Shown in pieces: positions 2 through 44,189 of a stretch of DNA of 64,000 nucleotides. The stretch's first letter is position 1; every line of letters starts with the position of its first letter. The notes under the pieces are model-generated. The model made no database searches and was not told the DNA's origin. It worked only from the letters and a program-made list of their open reading frames with translations. A program made the position numbers and the translations under genes. Origin of the DNA: Dictyobacter arantiisoli (GTDB lineage Bacteria > Chloroflexota > Ktedonobacteria > Ktedonobacterales > Ktedonobacteraceae); contig NZ_BIXY01000001.1 in NCBI RefSeq assembly GCF_008326305.1, positions 62,001 through 126,000 of the forward strand, given 5' to 3'.

Positions 2-2233
2 AATGAGCTCGAAATTATGGATTTTCAGATTGAGGAGAGCCGTACTTTTATCGAAAACTGGTTTCGAGCCTATCCAACCAACCAGAAAGAAGAGAAGATC
101 AAGGCCCTCACAGGCTATCTGGAACGCAACGTCCGTATCCAGACACTGGCGACAAATCCCCTCCTTCTCTCACTCATTGCCATTGTCTGTGAAAGGCAGC
201 GTCGCATGCCCACACACAAAGCTCAACTCTATAGAGCCTGTATTGACATCCTGCAAACAGGCTGGGATACCAGTCGGGATATCGCACGCAGCCAGACCTT
301 TACACAAATCGCGCTCTCTCGCCTCTATGAGGAGATCGCCTGGCACTTCCACAACCAGAAGAAACGCTACTTTCCTCTGGACGAACTCCTTGCCGTGCTG
401 CAAAACTACTCCCAGACCAGTCATATGCCACTTGAAAGCTGCCAGCAGTTCCTTAATCAGATCGCAATTGACAATGGTCTACTACGCGAACAGGCTCATG
501 GCTGGTATGGTTTTTCACATCTCACCTTCCAGGAGTACTTTGTCACCCAGTACATCATTCGCAATCAACAACAAAAGCTCCTGCGTCAACACTTTGTTGA
601 TCCCTGGTGGGAGGAAGTTATTCTCCTCTATGCCAGTAGCACGTCGGATGCCAGTCAACTCCTGAGCATTCTCCTGGGACAACATCGCCAGCTTTATAAC
701 ACAGATGATCTCTTTCATACCCATCTTCTCCTGGCTGGCCGTTGCCTGGGAGAGAATCCACGTGTGAAGCAGCAAAAATTACCCGAACAGATCATTGATC
801 AGTTGTTGCAAACCTTACAATCTACACCATACGCGCTGGATCGTGAACGCATTGCGTCTATACTCGCAGGAATGGACCATGCGCACGCCAATCATCACTT
901 GCTACAGATTCTGACTGCACCCGCCAGTACTCCTGACCATATCTATGAATGCGTAGTGCGAGCCATCGGATATGCTGGCAATCCATCCTTTGCGACAGAG
1001 CTGGTAGCGCTCCTGGGGCAGTCGCACATAGCTCGCTATAAACGTATCATGCTCGCGCGAGCATTAGGGATCTTACAAGAAACGCACACTGGCAAACAAC
1101 TCGTTAGGCTCCTCGTCAATCCAAAAGAAGATCCTTTTGTGCGCCAGGGCGTTGGGATGACAATTGGACAACTGGGTGAAAGTAGCGCGCTTTCAGCCTT
1201 AATTCACGTCAGCCAGCAGGCAGATGAGCATACGCTGGTACTCCAAAGCATTGCCTTTGCCCTTGAAAAACTGGGCGGCCCACAGGCGATACAAGCACTC
1301 ATCACAATGGTACAGAACAGACTGCTCGACTCGGCTGTGCGCGGCAGTAGTATCAGGATGCTGGGCAAGCTACACGCCAGGAGCAGCATTCCCCTCTTAG
1401 AGACGATTCTAAAGGATCGTGAAGAGAACATTTACGTTCGGCGTTGCGCGGCCCTGGCGCTGGGTGAGTTTAGCTATGCCGAAATCCCTGTACCAACCAT
1501 GCTGGCTCTTCTGCATAGCAAATATGTTGAAACTGGCGTACGTGTCAGTATTGCCAATAGCTTTGCGACTCTCGGAGATCCTCGCGTAGCCAGCGAGCTC
1601 ATCGAAGTGCTTCTCAATCAGGATTGCCATATCAAAGTTCGCATGAGTGTTGCGCTAACGCTCGGTTTTCTCAAGCAACGCGAACAGATACTTACGCTGA
1701 GGAGCATCGCGCAAGAACAGCAACACGGTGATGTAAATCTCTATACCTGCCTGATAGTCGCGCTCAGCATGCTGGGAGTGAGCACCGTGATCAATGATCT
1801 GGTTGATCTCCTGCTGCATCCAGACATCGCGCATGATACACTCCCACATATTGTCAACGCGCTACTGATACAAGCTGAACAACATACCATTGATACCCAC
1901 GCGATGGCCCGGAAGATGGTCGGTCACCTGCAAGTTGTTACGCTGGACCGCTATCGAGGACAGTGCATCCTCAAGGTGCTCTGCAAGTTACGCGTCACCG
2001 CTATCGTGCCAGAGCTCTGTCTTCTGCTCGCAGAGCCAGCCATCGACCGCACCCTCAGACGCGGTATCGCCGATAGCATCGCTCAACTGGCACAGGATGA
2101 CGAAACCGCCCAGAGCCTGGCTCAACTACTACCGGCTTCAGATATACCCGATGACATCTATCTTACCTGCTGGATTGTCAATCGGCGCGCACGTAAAAAT
2201 GCAAGCACCATCTCAGAAAAATCGCCGCCATAA
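2..2233 (+). CDS. NACHT-type STAND protein with C-terminal HEAT repeats (5' end outside window)
   Basis: The reading frame is already open at base 2 (NELEIMDFQIEE), so the ATG at 17 is internal and the gene begins upstream. The first ~190 residues carry features usual just after a NACHT ATPase core: LATNPLLLSLIA, then a LYRACIDIL helix, then FSHLTFQEYF. The rest, about 540 residues, is a run of alpha-helical HEAT-like repeats with recurrent A-x-x-L-G-x-L patterns. The Walker motifs would lie outside the window and cannot be checked. NACHT/HEAT proteins are signalling or defence STAND ATPases in bacteria (family knowledge); a defence role here is inference. The gene stops at 2233, with no clear partner downstream. 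Confidence 0.8.
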   Translation, partial: NELEIMDFQIEESRTFIENWFRAYPTNQKEEKIKALTGYLERNVRIQTLATNPLLLSLIAIVCERQRRMPTHKAQLYRACIDILQTGWDTSRDIARSQTFTQIALSRLYEEIAWHFHNQKKRYFPLDELLAVLQNYSQTSHMPLESCQQFLNQIAIDNGLLREQAHGWYGFSHLTFQEYFVTQYIIRNQQQKLLRQHFVDPWWEEVILLYASSTSDASQLLSILLGQHRQLYNTDDLFHTHLLLAGRCLGENPRVKQQKLPEQIIDQLLQTLQSTPYALDRERIASILAGMDHAHANHHLLQILTAPASTPDHIYECVVRAIGYAGNPSFATELVALLGQSHIARYKRIMLARALGILQETHTGKQLVRLLVNPKEDPFVRQGVGMTIGQLGESSALSALIHVSQQADEHTLVLQSIAFALEKLGGPQAIQALITMVQNRLLDSAVRGSSIRMLGKLHARSSIPLLETILKDREENIYVRRCAALALGEFSYAEIPVPTMLALLHSKYVETGVRVSIANSFATLGDPRVASELIEVLLNQDCHIKVRMSVALTLGFLKQREQILTLRSIAQEQQHGDVNLYTCLIVALSMLGVSTVINDLVDLLLHPDIAHDTLPHIVNALLIQAEQHTIDTHAMARKMVGHLQVVTLDRYRGQCILKVLCKLRVTAIVPELCLLLAEPAIDRTLRRGIADSIAQLAQDDETAQSLAQLLPASDIPDDIYLTCWIVNRRARKNASTISEKSPP

Positions 2234-2402
2234 AAATCATCCAGAAAGAGCTGGATAATTCCTATAGAATAGCTCAATTATGATAAAAAAAGCAGTTGGA
2301 CAATCCATTGCTTCAGCTTGATACTGTATACTAATGGAGCAGGGTTTCGTATTGTAATGTAGTATGTTCCCAACTTTTAAAAGTTGCAAGGAGGCATCGC
2401 CT

Positions 2403-3524
2403 ATGTCCCTGCAAGCACATCATTCGACGCTAGGTTTTACCATCGGTGTCGAAGAAGAGTATCAAATTATTGATCCTCATACACGTGCCTTAAGTCAGGC
2501 ATCCCATCTCGTTCTGCCTTTGGCGCAGAACAATCTGGGGGATGCTGTCCAATATGAGATGATCCTGTCTCAAATCGAGATCGCGACTCCTGTTTGTCAG
2601 TCGCTCAATGAGGTGCATAAAGAACTGGCACGCTTGCGTGGTGGTATTATTAACGCTGCCCATCAGGTAGGAATGCTTATCGCAGCAGGCGGAACCCATC
2701 CTTTCTCACCCTGGTATGAACAAGAGGTGACACCGAAAGAACGGTATACATCCCTGATCGATACCTATCAGCAACTGATCCGCGAACAGGTTATTTTTGG
2801 ATGTCATGTGCACATTGGCGTGCCTGATCCTGAAATAGCAGCCTTGATTTTAAGCCATGCACGAGTCTGGCTCTCTCCGCTGATTGCGCTTACAGCCAAT
2901 TCGCCCTACTGGTTGGGCGCGGATACTGGCTATCAAGATTATCGAACTGGACTCTGGTGGACTGTGCCTCTGGCCGGACCACCGCCCTCTTTTACCTCCT
3001 ACGATGACTATCGCAATGTCATTCAGGGACTGATTGAGACCTCCAGTATCGATGACGCAACCAAGATCTATTGGGATCTACGCCTCTCGGAGCGCTTTCC
3101 AACCATTGAGTTTCGTGTCATGGATGTTTGCATGACACTTGATGAAACGATTATGGTGACCGGCCTGATTCGCGCCCTGGTGCGCACATGCTATGAACAG
3201 GTCATGCGTAAGATACCATTTCCAGATGTGCCGGTTGATCAGTTGCGTGCGATGCACTGGCGCGCGGCACGTTATGGTCTGAATACACAGTTAATCGATG
3301 TGCCAACACGGCGTATTGTTTCTGCCCACCAGTGTATTGAACAGATGCTGACATTTGTGCGTCCGGCACTCGAGGCTGAGGGTGACTGGGAACGCGTTTC
3401 ACGAGCCGTCTATAAAGTATTACAAGAGGGCAACGGAGCCCGGCGGCAAGAACAGATCTATCAACGAACCAACGATTTTTCAGCGGTCGTTGATTATATG
3501 GTCAAGCAAACTTGTAGCTTTTAA
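2403..3524 (+). CDS. Carboxylate-amine ligase, glutamate-cysteine ligase type 2 (YbdK-like)
   Basis: The start is ATG 2403 (373 residues) because AAGGAGG at 2388-2394 lies 8 bases before it; an upstream ATG at 2364 lacks a ribosome site. The protein opens with GVEEEYQIID, the typical N-terminus of the GCS2 family, and has FGCHVHIGV in the middle plus a FRVMDVCMT segment, matching YbdK-like ATP-dependent carboxylate-amine ligases. The family joins glutamate to cysteine weakly or acts on other substrates, and the physiological substrate is often unknown. It sits alone between the NACHT gene and a convergent ABC operon, followed by a terminator-like hairpin. I infer only the enzyme class, not glutathione synthesis. 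Confidence 0.85.
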   Translation: MSLQAHHSTLGFTIGVEEEYQIIDPHTRALSQASHLVLPLAQNNLGDAVQYEMILSQIEIATPVCQSLNEVHKELARLRGGIINAAHQVGMLIAAGGTHPFSPWYEQEVTPKERYTSLIDTYQQLIREQVIFGCHVHIGVPDPEIAALILSHARVWLSPLIALTANSPYWLGADTGYQDYRTGLWWTVPLAGPPPSFTSYDDYRNVIQGLIETSSIDDATKIYWDLRLSERFPTIEFRVMDVCMTLDETIMVTGLIRALVRTCYEQVMRKIPFPDVPVDQLRAMHWRAARYGLNTQLIDVPTRRIVSAHQCIEQMLTFVRPALEAEGDWERVSRAVYKVLQEGNGARRQEQIYQRTNDFSAVVDYMVKQTCSF

Positions 3525-40398: not shown

Positions 40399-43300
40399 TC
40401 AGGAAGCCTTGGGATGTTGTTTGGACTCCCTGTACTCTGCGGTCAACTGTTGAATCATCTTTCTGGCTCCCTGAAAGCTCAAGGTATCCAGATCTTCAGG
40501 TGCGGGCTTATTCAGATGCTCGGATAACTTACGAATACTCGCCACCTGCTGCTCGGTCGCATTGGTGGGCACATCGGCATCCCCTGCACGATTAGTATTG
40601 CCATTGTTACCGACATGGTTATGACTATTGCTATTGGTAGCCGCCGTCATAGCAGATCGCACCGCAACAAAGGTTGAACCATTACTGGTATTCGTGCTGC
40701 TGCTAGTGCCTGGATTGGTAACTGGTTGGCGCTCGACCGGGCTATCGACAATGCGATGTGCCTCTTCCCATTCATCGCCCGTAAACTGCGTGCCATATCC
40801 CAGTGCAGCCAATGCACGGCCAATCGCGCCTGTTTCAGCCTTCTCAATAAAATCTGGAAAGCTCGCCGCCGACTCAGATTTGGTTCCGGTCGCCATACCG
40901 CCCACCCCATCTCTGACGGTCGCACGAAATACACAAAAGCCTTTGGCCTGCTTCATAATTTTCTCGCTTCGTCGACGCTCTGCATTCCACACAAACGCCT
41001 CTTCCTGTGTATCGCGGTCCAGGTCAAGATGCAGCATCTCTGTCTCGATCATGCCTTGCGGGAAAACAGAGCGAAACCATACTAAACGCCACTGGACTGG
41101 CAGATAGTCCTTAGAAGTTTGACCACTACGAATGTAGGGTAGATAGCCGACGAGTTGTCAATTGACACTTTTCCGACTACCCCCCCCCGAACCGTGCTTG
41201 CGACTTTCATCGCACACAGCTCTCCAGTATCGCTATTTCATGTGTTTGATAGTTTATCGTGTCATTGGTCGTCCTGCATGAACGTCTTCGTGACACGTTC
41301 GACAAAGAATGAGGGTTTTCCGCTGTCGGGTCGCCATTTTTTGCACCCATAATGGTTTTTCGCGTCCCGTGTATTCGTTGAGGTCTTTCAGTGCTCTGAT
41401 ATGGTGGACCTGGATGTTTTCCTTGTTTCCGCATAATTCACAAGTATCCATCAATAGTCTCTGTATCAATTCTGATGTTCCCCACCAATTACTGCGGTCT
41501 TTATCCTCTAAGATTGCCTTTGGATTCCGTATTAATGGAATCCCACCCCATTTTGCTACAATTGGCTCTTTTCCCTCTCTTGGTGTGATTACGATTAGCC
41601 CTTTATAGGCTTTTCCTTCCACATCATGAGTTGTCCCATATTTTCTGTACACTTTGTTTACAGACATCCTGTGTTTGTGTGCCAGCGTTTTGGTTAGGGA
41701 TATTTCCATGGTCCATTTTAGTTTACTTAATGCACCAATGTTCTGCGCCATTTGATAGTAATTGACGATACCTCGATATTCAAGCTGATAGGTTGACACG
41801 ATTGTATGATCAGTGTCGTTTGTCAGTTCTTTTCGGTGTATTGCCTTTCCATCCTTTTTGTAGCGATTACACTTTTCTTCTATGATGTCTCTTGGTACGA
41901 TGAGAGCAATTCCTCCGTTAATACCTCGTCGTGTGATCTTTCCTCGATTGGTTTGGTATGTCACACGCTTACTATCTTCTTGGAGCGTCTTGATCTCATA
42001 TCCTAAGAACCTTGCAGCTTCGCTTCTCGCATTTGTGATAAGCGTTTTGGATTTTGATAACTCCAGCTTGAGTTCATCACGTAAGTACTTCTCTAGCTGT
42101 TGTTTGATATCCTCTGCCTCTTCCTTTGATCCGACGAATCCTAGAAGGAAATCATCGGCATATCGTACATATTTGAGACGTCGATAGTTTGGATCTTTGG
42201 GATCAATGGAGGGCATGTTGTGAAGTTGTTGCTTCACTTCTTGCGCTTCTTTGATTTTCCCTTTTTTCAGAAGCCTGCGGTAATGTCCCTTTACTCTTTC
42301 GTAATCAGGACTCATCCTCTTTTTGGCTCCTTTTGTGTAATTTGGGATGAGAACCGTTTCCACAAATTGATCTAATTTGTCCAAGTAGATATTGGATAGT
42401 AGAGGACTGAGTATTCCACCTTGTGGGGTTCCACTTAGTGTTTTGTTGAATTTCCAATCTTCAAGATATCCTGCTTCTAGCAGTCCACTGACGAGCTTGA
42501 TGAATCTTCCATCATCAATTTTCTCTTTCAGTATTGATAGCAATAGATTGTGATCTAATGCATCAAAACACTGAGAGATATCTCCCTCGATGAACCATGT
42601 TGTACCTAACCATGTGTAATGTATGTCTTGTAATGCCGTATGACATCCTCTTTCAGGTCGAAACCCATGAGAATTATTGCTAAATTGTGGTTCATAATAT
42701 GCCTCTAGTATGAGTCGTATTACTTCCTGTATTAGCTTGTCTGACCATGTTGGCATTCCGAGTGGCCTTACTTTTCCGGTTTTCTTCGGTATATAAGTCC
42801 TTCGTGCTGGATTCCATCGATACTTTTCATTTCGAATTGCCTCTATGATGGTATCTATTTTATCCAGTGACATCCCATCGGGCGTTTCCTTAGTAACTCC
42901 AGGTGTCATTGCACCTTTGTTCCGATAGATTTTTCCGTAGGCGGTTAAGTACAATTCTTGGTTGAATAGTAATTTGTAGACACGTTCTAGTGGCAAACCT
43001 TTTTTGCCTCGCTCATGAATGAGCCCTTGAATAGTTTCGGCATTACGCATCTCACGTACCTTTCTATTTGTGACTCAGCGATACCTGCCCTGCTTGCCTT
43101 TATCAAGGGCAAGCTCTGGCCCTCCTTCGAGGGCTGCCCCTTCGCCATGTGAACAGCTTTCCCGTTCTCGGACTACTATGGGGGCTCCGTCACCATAGGA
43201 CTCGCGTCCCTTAGGCGATCCCACCTTTACACTCACTGAACGTTTAAGTACGTTTAGGTGCCCATTCCGTTCCCTTACCCCATGTCACTCATGGGTACTC

Positions 43301-43682
43301 ATTACAGAGAGCATTCCGTATCCATACAAATCTGATACGTTTTGCAATGTCATCGTCTCAGGTATGCTACGATGGGTGCACCTTTTCACCGTTGGGAACT
43401 TGGGTTTAACCAATTCGGGTTTCACCATGCGTACAGGACTTGCGAAGCGTGGATCGTACATACCTTCTATTCACCTTCGCTTTAATGACAGGCTGTTGTC
43501 CTCTTTGAGTTTCCTCTCTAAGTAAGCCATCGTCCTAGAGGTTATTGCTCTCAACCTCTCCATCTTTTGATGGTATTCTAGTGAGTGCCGAAGTGGCGCG
43601 CTTGTATCAGATGTTCATTGGGATGAAACACACGGGTTGGTGCTTGCTCTTCCTGAACTTGCCCTGTGGTTTGATCGTTCAT
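40399..43682 (-). CDS. Rad52/Sak-like annealing protein gene split by a group II intron (exons 43602-43682 and 40399-41133)
   Basis: Exon 1 runs leftward from ATG 43682 (AAGGAG 6 bases upstream) and encodes 27 residues ending PNEHLIQ. Exon 2 from 41133 continues IRSGQTSKDYLPVQWRLVWF, keeping the frame, giving a 271-residue protein. The core has TVRDGVGGMATGTKSESAAS and EKAETGAIGRALAALGYGTQF, features of Rad52/Sak-like single-strand annealing proteins (moderate certainty). A Thr/Asn/Ser-rich linker follows, then a C-terminal helical region (ATEQQVASIRKLSEHLNK). Without splicing, exon 1 runs into intron stop codons, while an internal ATG at 41052 could give a truncated protein of 217 residues. 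The intron insertion is exactly between codons 27 and 28. Confidence 0.75.
41189..41222 (-). ncRNA. Group II intron domain V
   Basis: The 34-nt minus-strand sequence starts GAGC, includes the AGC triad and the GAAA tetraloop in GAUGAAAGUC, and ends CACGGUUC. This length and layout is typical of the catalytic hairpin. It lies 31 bases beyond the reverse transcriptase stop and 55 bases before the intron end. Confidence 0.93.
41254..43050 (-). CDS. ltrA: Group II intron reverse transcriptase/maturase with HNH endonuclease
   Basis: This 598-residue protein has all parts of a mobile intron protein. RT blocks include RRTYIPKKTGKVRPLGMPTWSDK near 83, FRPERGCHTAL near 130, WFIEGDISQCFDALDH near 150, SGTPQGGILSPLLSNIYLD near 205 and catalytic YADDFLLGF near 295. 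A maturase X domain with TYQLEYRGIVNYYQMA near 430 comes next. The C-terminal HNH nuclease has CELCGNKENIQVHHI near 535 and CRTCHEDVHAG near 580 with two CxxC pairs. Nothing is missing, so the intron looks mobile and splicing-competent. The protein assists splicing and target-primed insertion (family knowledge). Confidence 0.96.
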   Translation of the reverse strand: MRNAETIQGLIHERGKKGLPLERVYKLLFNQELYLTAYGKIYRNKGAMTPGVTKETPDGMSLDKIDTIIEAIRNEKYRWNPARRTYIPKKTGKVRPLGMPTWSDKLIQEVIRLILEAYYEPQFSNNSHGFRPERGCHTALQDIHYTWLGTTWFIEGDISQCFDALDHNLLLSILKEKIDDGRFIKLVSGLLEAGYLEDWKFNKTLSGTPQGGILSPLLSNIYLDKLDQFVETVLIPNYTKGAKKRMSPDYERVKGHYRRLLKKGKIKEAQEVKQQLHNMPSIDPKDPNYRRLKYVRYADDFLLGFVGSKEEAEDIKQQLEKYLRDELKLELSKSKTLITNARSEAARFLGYEIKTLQEDSKRVTYQTNRGKITRRGINGGIALIVPRDIIEEKCNRYKKDGKAIHRKELTNDTDHTIVSTYQLEYRGIVNYYQMAQNIGALSKLKWTMEISLTKTLAHKHRMSVNKVYRKYGTTHDVEGKAYKGLIVITPREGKEPIVAKWGGIPLIRNPKAILEDKDRSNWWGTSELIQRLLMDTCELCGNKENIQVHHIRALKDLNEYTGREKPLWVQKMATRQRKTLILCRTCHEDVHAGRPMTR

Positions 43683-44189
43683 GCTCTGCTCCTTTTCGAA
43701 AATTTGTTCTATTGATTTTAGAACACTGGATCTAACTTGTCAAGTTTCAGCCTATATCATTTTGTATCAGACAATAAAACTATTCTTTTCCAGGTACAAA
43801 AAAGTGGTAGTAAACAAGGGAGCATTATTACTAGCAAATCTACGTATCACCTCACTAAAAAACCTGGCGAGGGACAAAAAAAGAGACTTTTTTGTCCCTA
43901 CTCTATACTGTCAATGAAGCACAAACTTTATAGTCTCACAGTTATATCTGGAGTAGAGAGAAGGCATATTTTCGTCAACAGCTATCCCTGGAGTCTGGGA
44001 GTTTGCGCGTAGTAAAAGGACTGCAATCCGTCAACCTGTACACGGAAGGGTGCTCAAAAACCCATCATATCCTTATGTTTACAGGTCCAGACAAGCGTAC
44101 TGGCATACAACAGACGGTCATAGTTAACACAGTGATACTTTGTGGATGCTTAGCAAGAAGACGTTGCGAAATAAAAGGAGATGTTCTCA
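43683..44189. promoter_or_regulatory. Divergent region between the Rad52-like and metalloprotease genes
   Basis: No gene is convincing in this 500-base gap. It holds a hairpin pairing AGGGACAAAAAA at 43870 with TTTTTTGTCCCT at 43888; its symmetrical A and T runs could work in either direction. Promoters for both flanking genes must be here but were not assignable. Confidence 0.45.

What the first reader, a model, noticed from the sequence alone, without database searches (positions are those of the whole stretch)
40399..43682. Group II intron inserted exactly between codons of a Rad52-like annealing-protein gene
The intron (41134-43601, minus strand) separates exon 1 (27 codons, 43602-43682) from exon 2 (40399-41133). 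Joining them restores one frame: ...PNEHLIQ/IRSGQTSKDYLP..., a continuous protein. Domain V, a full RT-maturase-HNH protein and an EBS1/IBS1 match (TTGTAT with ATACAA) are all present. Bacterial group II introns usually avoid conserved host genes, so a splicing-dependent recombination protein is unusual. If the intron is mobile, DNA repair and retrohoming might influence one another (inference).
Basis: partly seen in the sequence, partly recalled or inferred. Interest (0 to 1): 0.75.

Follow-up and report, generated by a model that had tools for sequence, protein, structure and literature searches.

The report
Self-splicing intron inside DNA-annealing gene
A mobile self-splicing RNA element (a group II intron) sits inside the only copy of a conserved bacterial gene for a Rad52-like DNA-annealing protein, so the cell should have to cut the element out of the RNA to make the protein, and a sister species carries a related element at a different place in the same gene.

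Summary
A complete 2468-nt group II intron (41134-43601, minus strand; IIA type, LtrA-like RT-maturase-HNH protein) splits a 271-codon gene after codon 27. Orthologues in the same genus (Dictyobacter vulcani, D. aurantiacus) run unbroken through the junction at the same syntenic locus. The predicted fold best matches RAD52, Mgm101 and phage Sak, so "Rad52-like annealing protein" holds by structure, although no Pfam family matches. EBS1-IBS1 (6/6), EBS2-IBS2 and delta-delta' all pair; a scan across 18 related introns supports EBS2.

New here: D. kobayashii carries a related intron (66% identical) in the same gene, 34 codons downstream, with its own matching EBS1, which indicates recurrent invasion of one chromosomal gene. 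The intron's nearest relatives otherwise sit mostly in transposase and TnpB genes. This genome, two congeners and one other genus also have a distinct group II intron inside the Walker A codons of chromosomal parA.

Splicing is inferred, not shown; the window intron starts GCGCG where all 23 other intron ends compared start GTGCG. Bacterial housekeeping-gene introns of this lineage are known (e.g. Geobacillus recA), so this is a new member of a known kind. The suggested repair-retrohoming feedback is untested.

The parts
43602..43682 (-). Exon 1 of the host gene (ATG plus 26 codons)
   Evidence: orthologues about 73% identical over the whole protein continue across the junction
40399..41133 (-). 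Exon 2 of the host gene (Rad52-like core from codon 28, disordered linker, C-terminal helical domain, stop)
41134..43601 (-). Group II intron, 2468 nt, 5' GCGCG ... 3' CTAC
41254..43050 (-). Intron-encoded protein: RT (YADD), maturase, HNH endonuclease; 598 aa, intact
41189..41222 (-). Domain V; catalytic AGC triad at 41219-41221
41136..41188 (-). Domain VI; predicted branch-point A at 41140, 7 nt from the 3' end
   Evidence: Rfam structure line; fold z = -6.0 for DV+DVI
43324..43329 (-). EBS1 (TTGTAT); delta nucleotide T at 43330
43602..43607 (-). IBS1 (ATACAA); delta' is A at 41133
43379..43383 (-). EBS2 (AGGTG)
   Evidence: covariation scan over 18 introns, mean 4.25 of 5 pairs against a shuffled maximum of 2.61
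43609..43613 (-). IBS2 (CATCT)
43715..43743 (-). Sigma-70-like promoter TTGACA-17 nt-TAAAAT, also present in D. kobayashii (TTGACA-17-TAGAAT)
   Evidence: read directly from the sequences

Best explanation
A full-length, mobile-type group IIA (mitochondrial-like lineage, LtrA-like) intron has retrohomed in sense orientation into the only copy of a chromosomal gene for a Rad52-superfamily single-strand annealing protein in a Dictyobacter species. To make the protein, the transcript must fold, the intron (helped by its own maturase) must pair EBS1, EBS2 and delta with the exons, and it must splice out as a lariat through the bulged A of domain VI, joining codon 27 to codon 28. D. kobayashii acquired a related intron in the same gene, between codons 61 and 62, most likely by an independent event with a differently programmed EBS1. 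Shown by sequence: anatomy, pairing, uninterrupted orthologues, synteny, purifying selection on both exons, second insertion site. Inferred: that splicing occurs, how efficient it is, and that the element is still mobile.
For: Joined frame. DV/DVI Rfam hit and fold. Intact IEP; closest solved structure LtrA 5g2x, E = 1e-121 over residues 22-590. EBS1/IBS1 6/6 with delta-delta' in both the window and D. kobayashii introns. EBS2 by covariation. No sign of interruption in 26 of the 27 other family genomes that have the gene (one of the 26, G007, is only a partial match with stops) and same neighbours (M4 peptidase, XdhC, MoxR, DUF58, DUF4129) in three congeners. Only one locus in the own genome. 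Low pN against near-saturated pS for exon 1 and for the core. Second intron in D. kobayashii. IEP and ribozyme trees do not join the two introns as sisters. Fold search: the top 18 PDB matches are RAD52, Mgm101 or Sak.
Against: No RNA data. The 5' end is GCGCG, not the GTGCG of all 23 other intron 5' ends compared. Synonymous sites are saturated, so a very recent loss of function would not be seen. Monophyly of the two introns is not firmly rejected (AU p 0.118 for IEP, 0.046 for ribozyme DNA, 0.183 for full DNA). Foldseek E-values of the best PDB matches are only 0.002-0.1.
Confidence: 0.87

Rival explanations
1. The insertion is recent and splicing-defective, so the host gene is effectively knocked out and will decay; the U2C change at the 5' splice site (GCGCG) is the lesion or an early decay mark.
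For: The GCGCG start is the only departure among the 24 intron 5' ends compared. Group II introns in bacteria are often inactivated (PMC4424553) and reduce host expression (PMC6003770).
Against: Ribozyme core, EBS pairs, DVI and IEP are all intact. The exons show no stop, frameshift or clear relaxation of selection. U2 lies outside the G3-C4 epsilon pairing (general knowledge).
Confidence: 0.09
2. The two introns in this gene descend from one ancestral insertion that later moved within the gene (local retrotransposition plus precise loss), so this is one invasion rather than two.
For: They are each other's highest nucleotide match in the 12-intron set (66% full, 71% ribozyme) and belong to one 11-row subclade (96/95). 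AU tests do not clearly reject sisterhood.
Against: Neither tree joins them: in the IEP tree D. kobayashii groups with introns from other genera (96/82), in the ribozyme tree the window groups with a D. vulcani intron (83/84). EBS1 sequences are unrelated (TTGTAT and GAGCAT). Two congeners have neither insertion.
Confidence: 0.15
3. A shorter protein starting at the internal ATG (ORF 40399-41052, 217 aa) is the functional product, so splicing is unnecessary.
For: There is an in-frame ATG 27 codons after the junction.
Against: It would drop the N-terminal helix and strands of the conserved Rad52-like core (residues 22-54, mostly predicted with high confidence). Only a weak AAGG precedes that ATG. 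Exon 1 is itself conserved.
Confidence: 0.04

Closest known systems
Geobacillus kaustophilus recA interrupted by a group II intron (Chee and Takami 2005, cited as ref. 139 in PMC4424553)
   Same: Group II intron in a bacterial recombination/repair gene.
   Different: Different host gene (RecA ATPase, not a Rad52-like annealer) and unrelated bacterium; that paper was not read, so intron class was not compared here.
Ll.LtrB / LtrA of Lactococcus lactis (group IIA, ML lineage)
   Same: IEP homologous end to end (E = 1e-121), delta-delta' type exon recognition, HNH endonuclease present.
   Different: Ll.LtrB sits in a conjugative relaxase gene on a mobile element; this one is in a chromosomal gene.
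Housekeeping-gene introns of CL and ML lineages, particularly in cyanobacteria (PMC4424553)
   Same: Bacterial introns resident in conserved genes that must splice.
   Different: Phylum (Ktedonobacteria), host gene, and two different sites in one gene within one genus.
Group II introns of Ktedonobacter racemifer (34 RT-maturase-HNH genes, PMC3236041)
   Same: Same family of bacteria and same IEP domain order.
   Different: The passages read from that paper do not describe host genes; our relatives from Ktedonobacter lie mostly in transposase/TnpB genes.

Membership tests
Group II intron | Domain V with AGC triad and two-nucleotide bulge, followed by domain VI with bulged A | tested here: met
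   RF00029 64.7 bits; aligned structure shows AGC and bulged A 7 nt from the 3' end
Group II intron | 5' end GUGYG and 3' end AY | tested here: inconclusive
   3' AC met; 5' is GCGCG, one base off the consensus
Group II intron | EBS1-IBS1 and EBS2-IBS2 pairing | tested here: met
   EBS1 6/6; EBS2 5/5 with one G-U, position found by covariation
Group II intron | Excision by splicing and ligation of exons | not testable with these tools
   needs RNA
Group IIA / ML (LtrA-like) lineage | delta-delta' pairing of exon 2 first base with the base before EBS1 | tested here: met
   A-T here, C-G in D. kobayashii, and paired in every other cleanly bounded relative whose EBS1 was found
Group IIA / ML (LtrA-like) lineage | IEP nearest to LtrA | tested here: met
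   LtrA far ahead of class C and other RTs among solved structures; placement on a reference tree of all lineages was not done
Rad52 superfamily annealing protein | Rad52-like fold | tested here: met
   AlphaFold core pLDDT above 90; 18 best PDB matches are RAD52, Mgm101 or 80alpha Sak, E 0.002-0.1
Rad52 superfamily annealing protein | Sequence match to a curated Rad52/Sak/ERF family | tested here: not met
   no Pfam match in the window protein or the first orthologue and only weak unrelated ones in others; PHROG 27776/11717 of unknown function
Rad52 superfamily annealing protein | ssDNA binding and annealing in a ring | not testable with these tools
   needs biochemistry
Intron in a conserved housekeeping gene | Host is conserved, chromosomal, single copy, syntenic | tested here: met
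   27 of 28 other same-family genomes have the gene (G018 does not); one locus in own genome; neighbours kept in three congeners
Intron in a conserved housekeeping gene | Host gene essential | not testable with these tools
   no knock-out data

The most novel reading that the evidence does not exclude
The annealing-protein gene is a preferred refuge for these introns because intron and host protein interact: the Rad52-like protein helps complete or limit retrohoming (annealing of cDNA or gap repair) and the intron in turn throttles its expression through splicing, giving a feedback loop. Two separate insertions in one gene within one genus would be its footprint.
Probability: 0.05. Interest if true: 0.85.

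Novelty: new member of a known kind. Interest (0 to 1): 0.5.

Why it matters
Bacterial group II introns are thought to stay out of conserved genes because they depress host expression (PMC6003770). Here one genus carries them in an annealing-protein gene at two different sites and, in three of its five held genomes, inside the P-loop codons of the single chromosomal parA ortholog. Dictyobacter would be a natural place to test how a bacterium lives with introns in genes it needs, a step in the usual account of how spliceosomal introns arose. The intron-bearing and intron-free sister species give ready-made controls.

Tried and rejected
Sequence-only searches did not name the host protein: Pfam, NCBIfam, PDB phmmer and profile search gave no Rad52 match; only fold comparison did. 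First attempt to find EBS2 by eye failed; an unbiased covariation scan found it about 50 nt upstream of EBS1. Considered insertion between codons as a special property: rejected, relatives also occur in phase 1. Considered two domain V hits 200 nt apart in own contig C134 as alternative splicing: rejected, the 3' flank of the first reads as the C-terminal HNH part of another IEP, so it is more simply a twintron. Partial matches of the host protein's residues 12-67 at many places in G006 were not followed. No paper in the library mentions group II introns together with Dictyobacter.

Full report
Observation. Exons 43602-43682 and 40399-41133 (minus strand) join into one 271-aa frame; unspliced, the frame hits a stop 7 codons into the intron. 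The intron is 41134-43601, 2468 nt. Rfam finds domain V/VI at 41134-41224 with 64.7 bits; the alignment shows the AGC triad and the bulged A seven bases from the 3' end, and DV+DVI folds with z = -6. The 598-aa intron protein has RT, maturase and HNH domains, and its nearest solved relative is LtrA (E = 1e-121).

Target recognition. EBS1 (TTGTAT, 43324-43329) pairs 6/6 with IBS1 (ATACAA) and the preceding T pairs with the first base of exon 2, the delta-delta' contact of group IIA. In 18 related introns an unbiased column scan found EBS2 (mean 4.25 of 5 pairs; 40 shuffles of the exon assignments never exceeded 2.61): here AGGTG at 43379-43383 with IBS2 CATCT at 43609-43613. One oddity: this intron begins GCGCG, whereas all 23 other intron 5' ends in that comparison (some near-duplicates) begin GTGCG. 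It might lower splicing, or be tolerated, or be a sequencing error in this draft genome.

Host gene. Among 28 same-family genomes other than the window's own, 27 carry the gene; 26 of those show no intron (one, G007, is only a partial match with stops) and D. kobayashii is the exception. The window genome has a single locus. D. vulcani and D. aurantiacus orthologues run ungapped through the junction, and the same neighbours (M4 peptidase, XdhC, MoxR, DUF58, DUF4129) surround the gene in three Dictyobacter species, so this is a chromosomal gene and not a phage gene. Sequence libraries do not name it. A model built from 28 homologues (core pLDDT above 90) matches human RAD52, yeast Mgm101 and phage 80alpha Sak as the top 18 PDB hits, and Rad52/ERF/Sak3-annotated phage proteins are among the matches in the viral library. 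'Rad52-like annealing protein' is thus supported by fold; activity is untested. Replacement changes are few against near-saturated silent changes in both exon 1 and the core (pN 0.06-0.14, pS 0.38-0.79 between the window and congeners), so both exons have been under selection over the genus, although saturation hides very recent events.

Second invasion. D. kobayashii has a 2499-nt intron in the same gene after codon 61 (...GAGATGCTC | GTGCG ... CTCTAC | CACCTGGAT), with domain V at 69.9 bits, EBS1 GAGCAT pairing 6/6 with its own IBS1 ATGCTC and a matching delta pair. Its IEP appears frameshifted near codon 92, or the assembly has an error there. D. aurantiacus carries the same bases around that site with no intron. 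The two introns are 66% identical, lie in one IEP subclade, but are not sisters in the trees; sisterhood is weakly disfavoured and not excluded (AU p 0.118, 0.046, 0.183). I read this as two insertions. A rough chance estimate (mine, post hoc): if a handful (2-10) of surviving core-gene insertions fell at random on 2000-3000 shared genes, two in the same gene would happen with probability about 0.0003-0.02.

Base rate. Junction-crossing frames of the closest relatives with clean ends are mostly transposon genes: TnpB/Cas12f-like, IS21-type rve, ISL3, DDE_3. So the usual habitat of this intron family is the mobile one, and the annealer gene is an exception met twice.

Other conserved host in the same genus. 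A different group II intron lineage lies between the G and K codons of the Walker A motif (KGGVG/KTT) of the single chromosomal parA ortholog, next to a parB-like gene, in this genome, D. vulcani, one unnamed congener and one genome of another genus; 26 other genomes are uninterrupted. Dictyobacter therefore bears introns in at least two conserved genes.

Mechanism. Most likely: transcription from the shared sigma-70-like promoter (43715-43743, read by eye), folding, maturase-assisted splicing through exon pairing, and translation of the joined mRNA. All steps after the sequence anatomy are inference from the known family.

Novelty. Precedents exist: recA of Geobacillus, and CL/ML introns in housekeeping genes (PMC4424553); rarity is acknowledged in PMC6003770. 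Hence a new member of a known kind, of above-average interest because of recurrence in one gene and the parA case.

Noticed in passing
G000 contig C70:20511-25480 (L002, L069, L147); L148 (G001), L149 (G002), L157 (G008): The single chromosomal parA (soj) ortholog is split by a group II intron inside the Walker A codons KGGVG/KTT, with a parB-like gene downstream; 4 of 30 genomes have it, 26 do not. A second, plasmid-type ParA in D. aurantiacus (L150) has one at the same motif.
   Followed up: partly
G000 contig C134:6948-9132 (L003, L004, L070): Two domain V hits 200 nt apart; the 3' flank of the inner one reads as the HNH end of another IEP, so probably a twintron.
   Followed up: partly
L018:4418-4685 (-) and L025:7072-7339 (+): HEARO RNA (RF02033) close to the annealer gene in two Ktedonobacter genomes.
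   Followed up: no
L108, L109 (G023): Twintrons: an inner intron inserted at the YADD codons of another intron's RT gene.
   Followed up: no
G006, about a dozen contigs: Many weak matches (27-37%) to residues 12-67 of the annealer, suggesting a repeated family of genes sharing its N-terminal part.
   Followed up: no
L064 (G007 C51): Annealer orthologue matching only residues 14-163 with stops inside; degraded gene or assembly fault.
   Followed up: no
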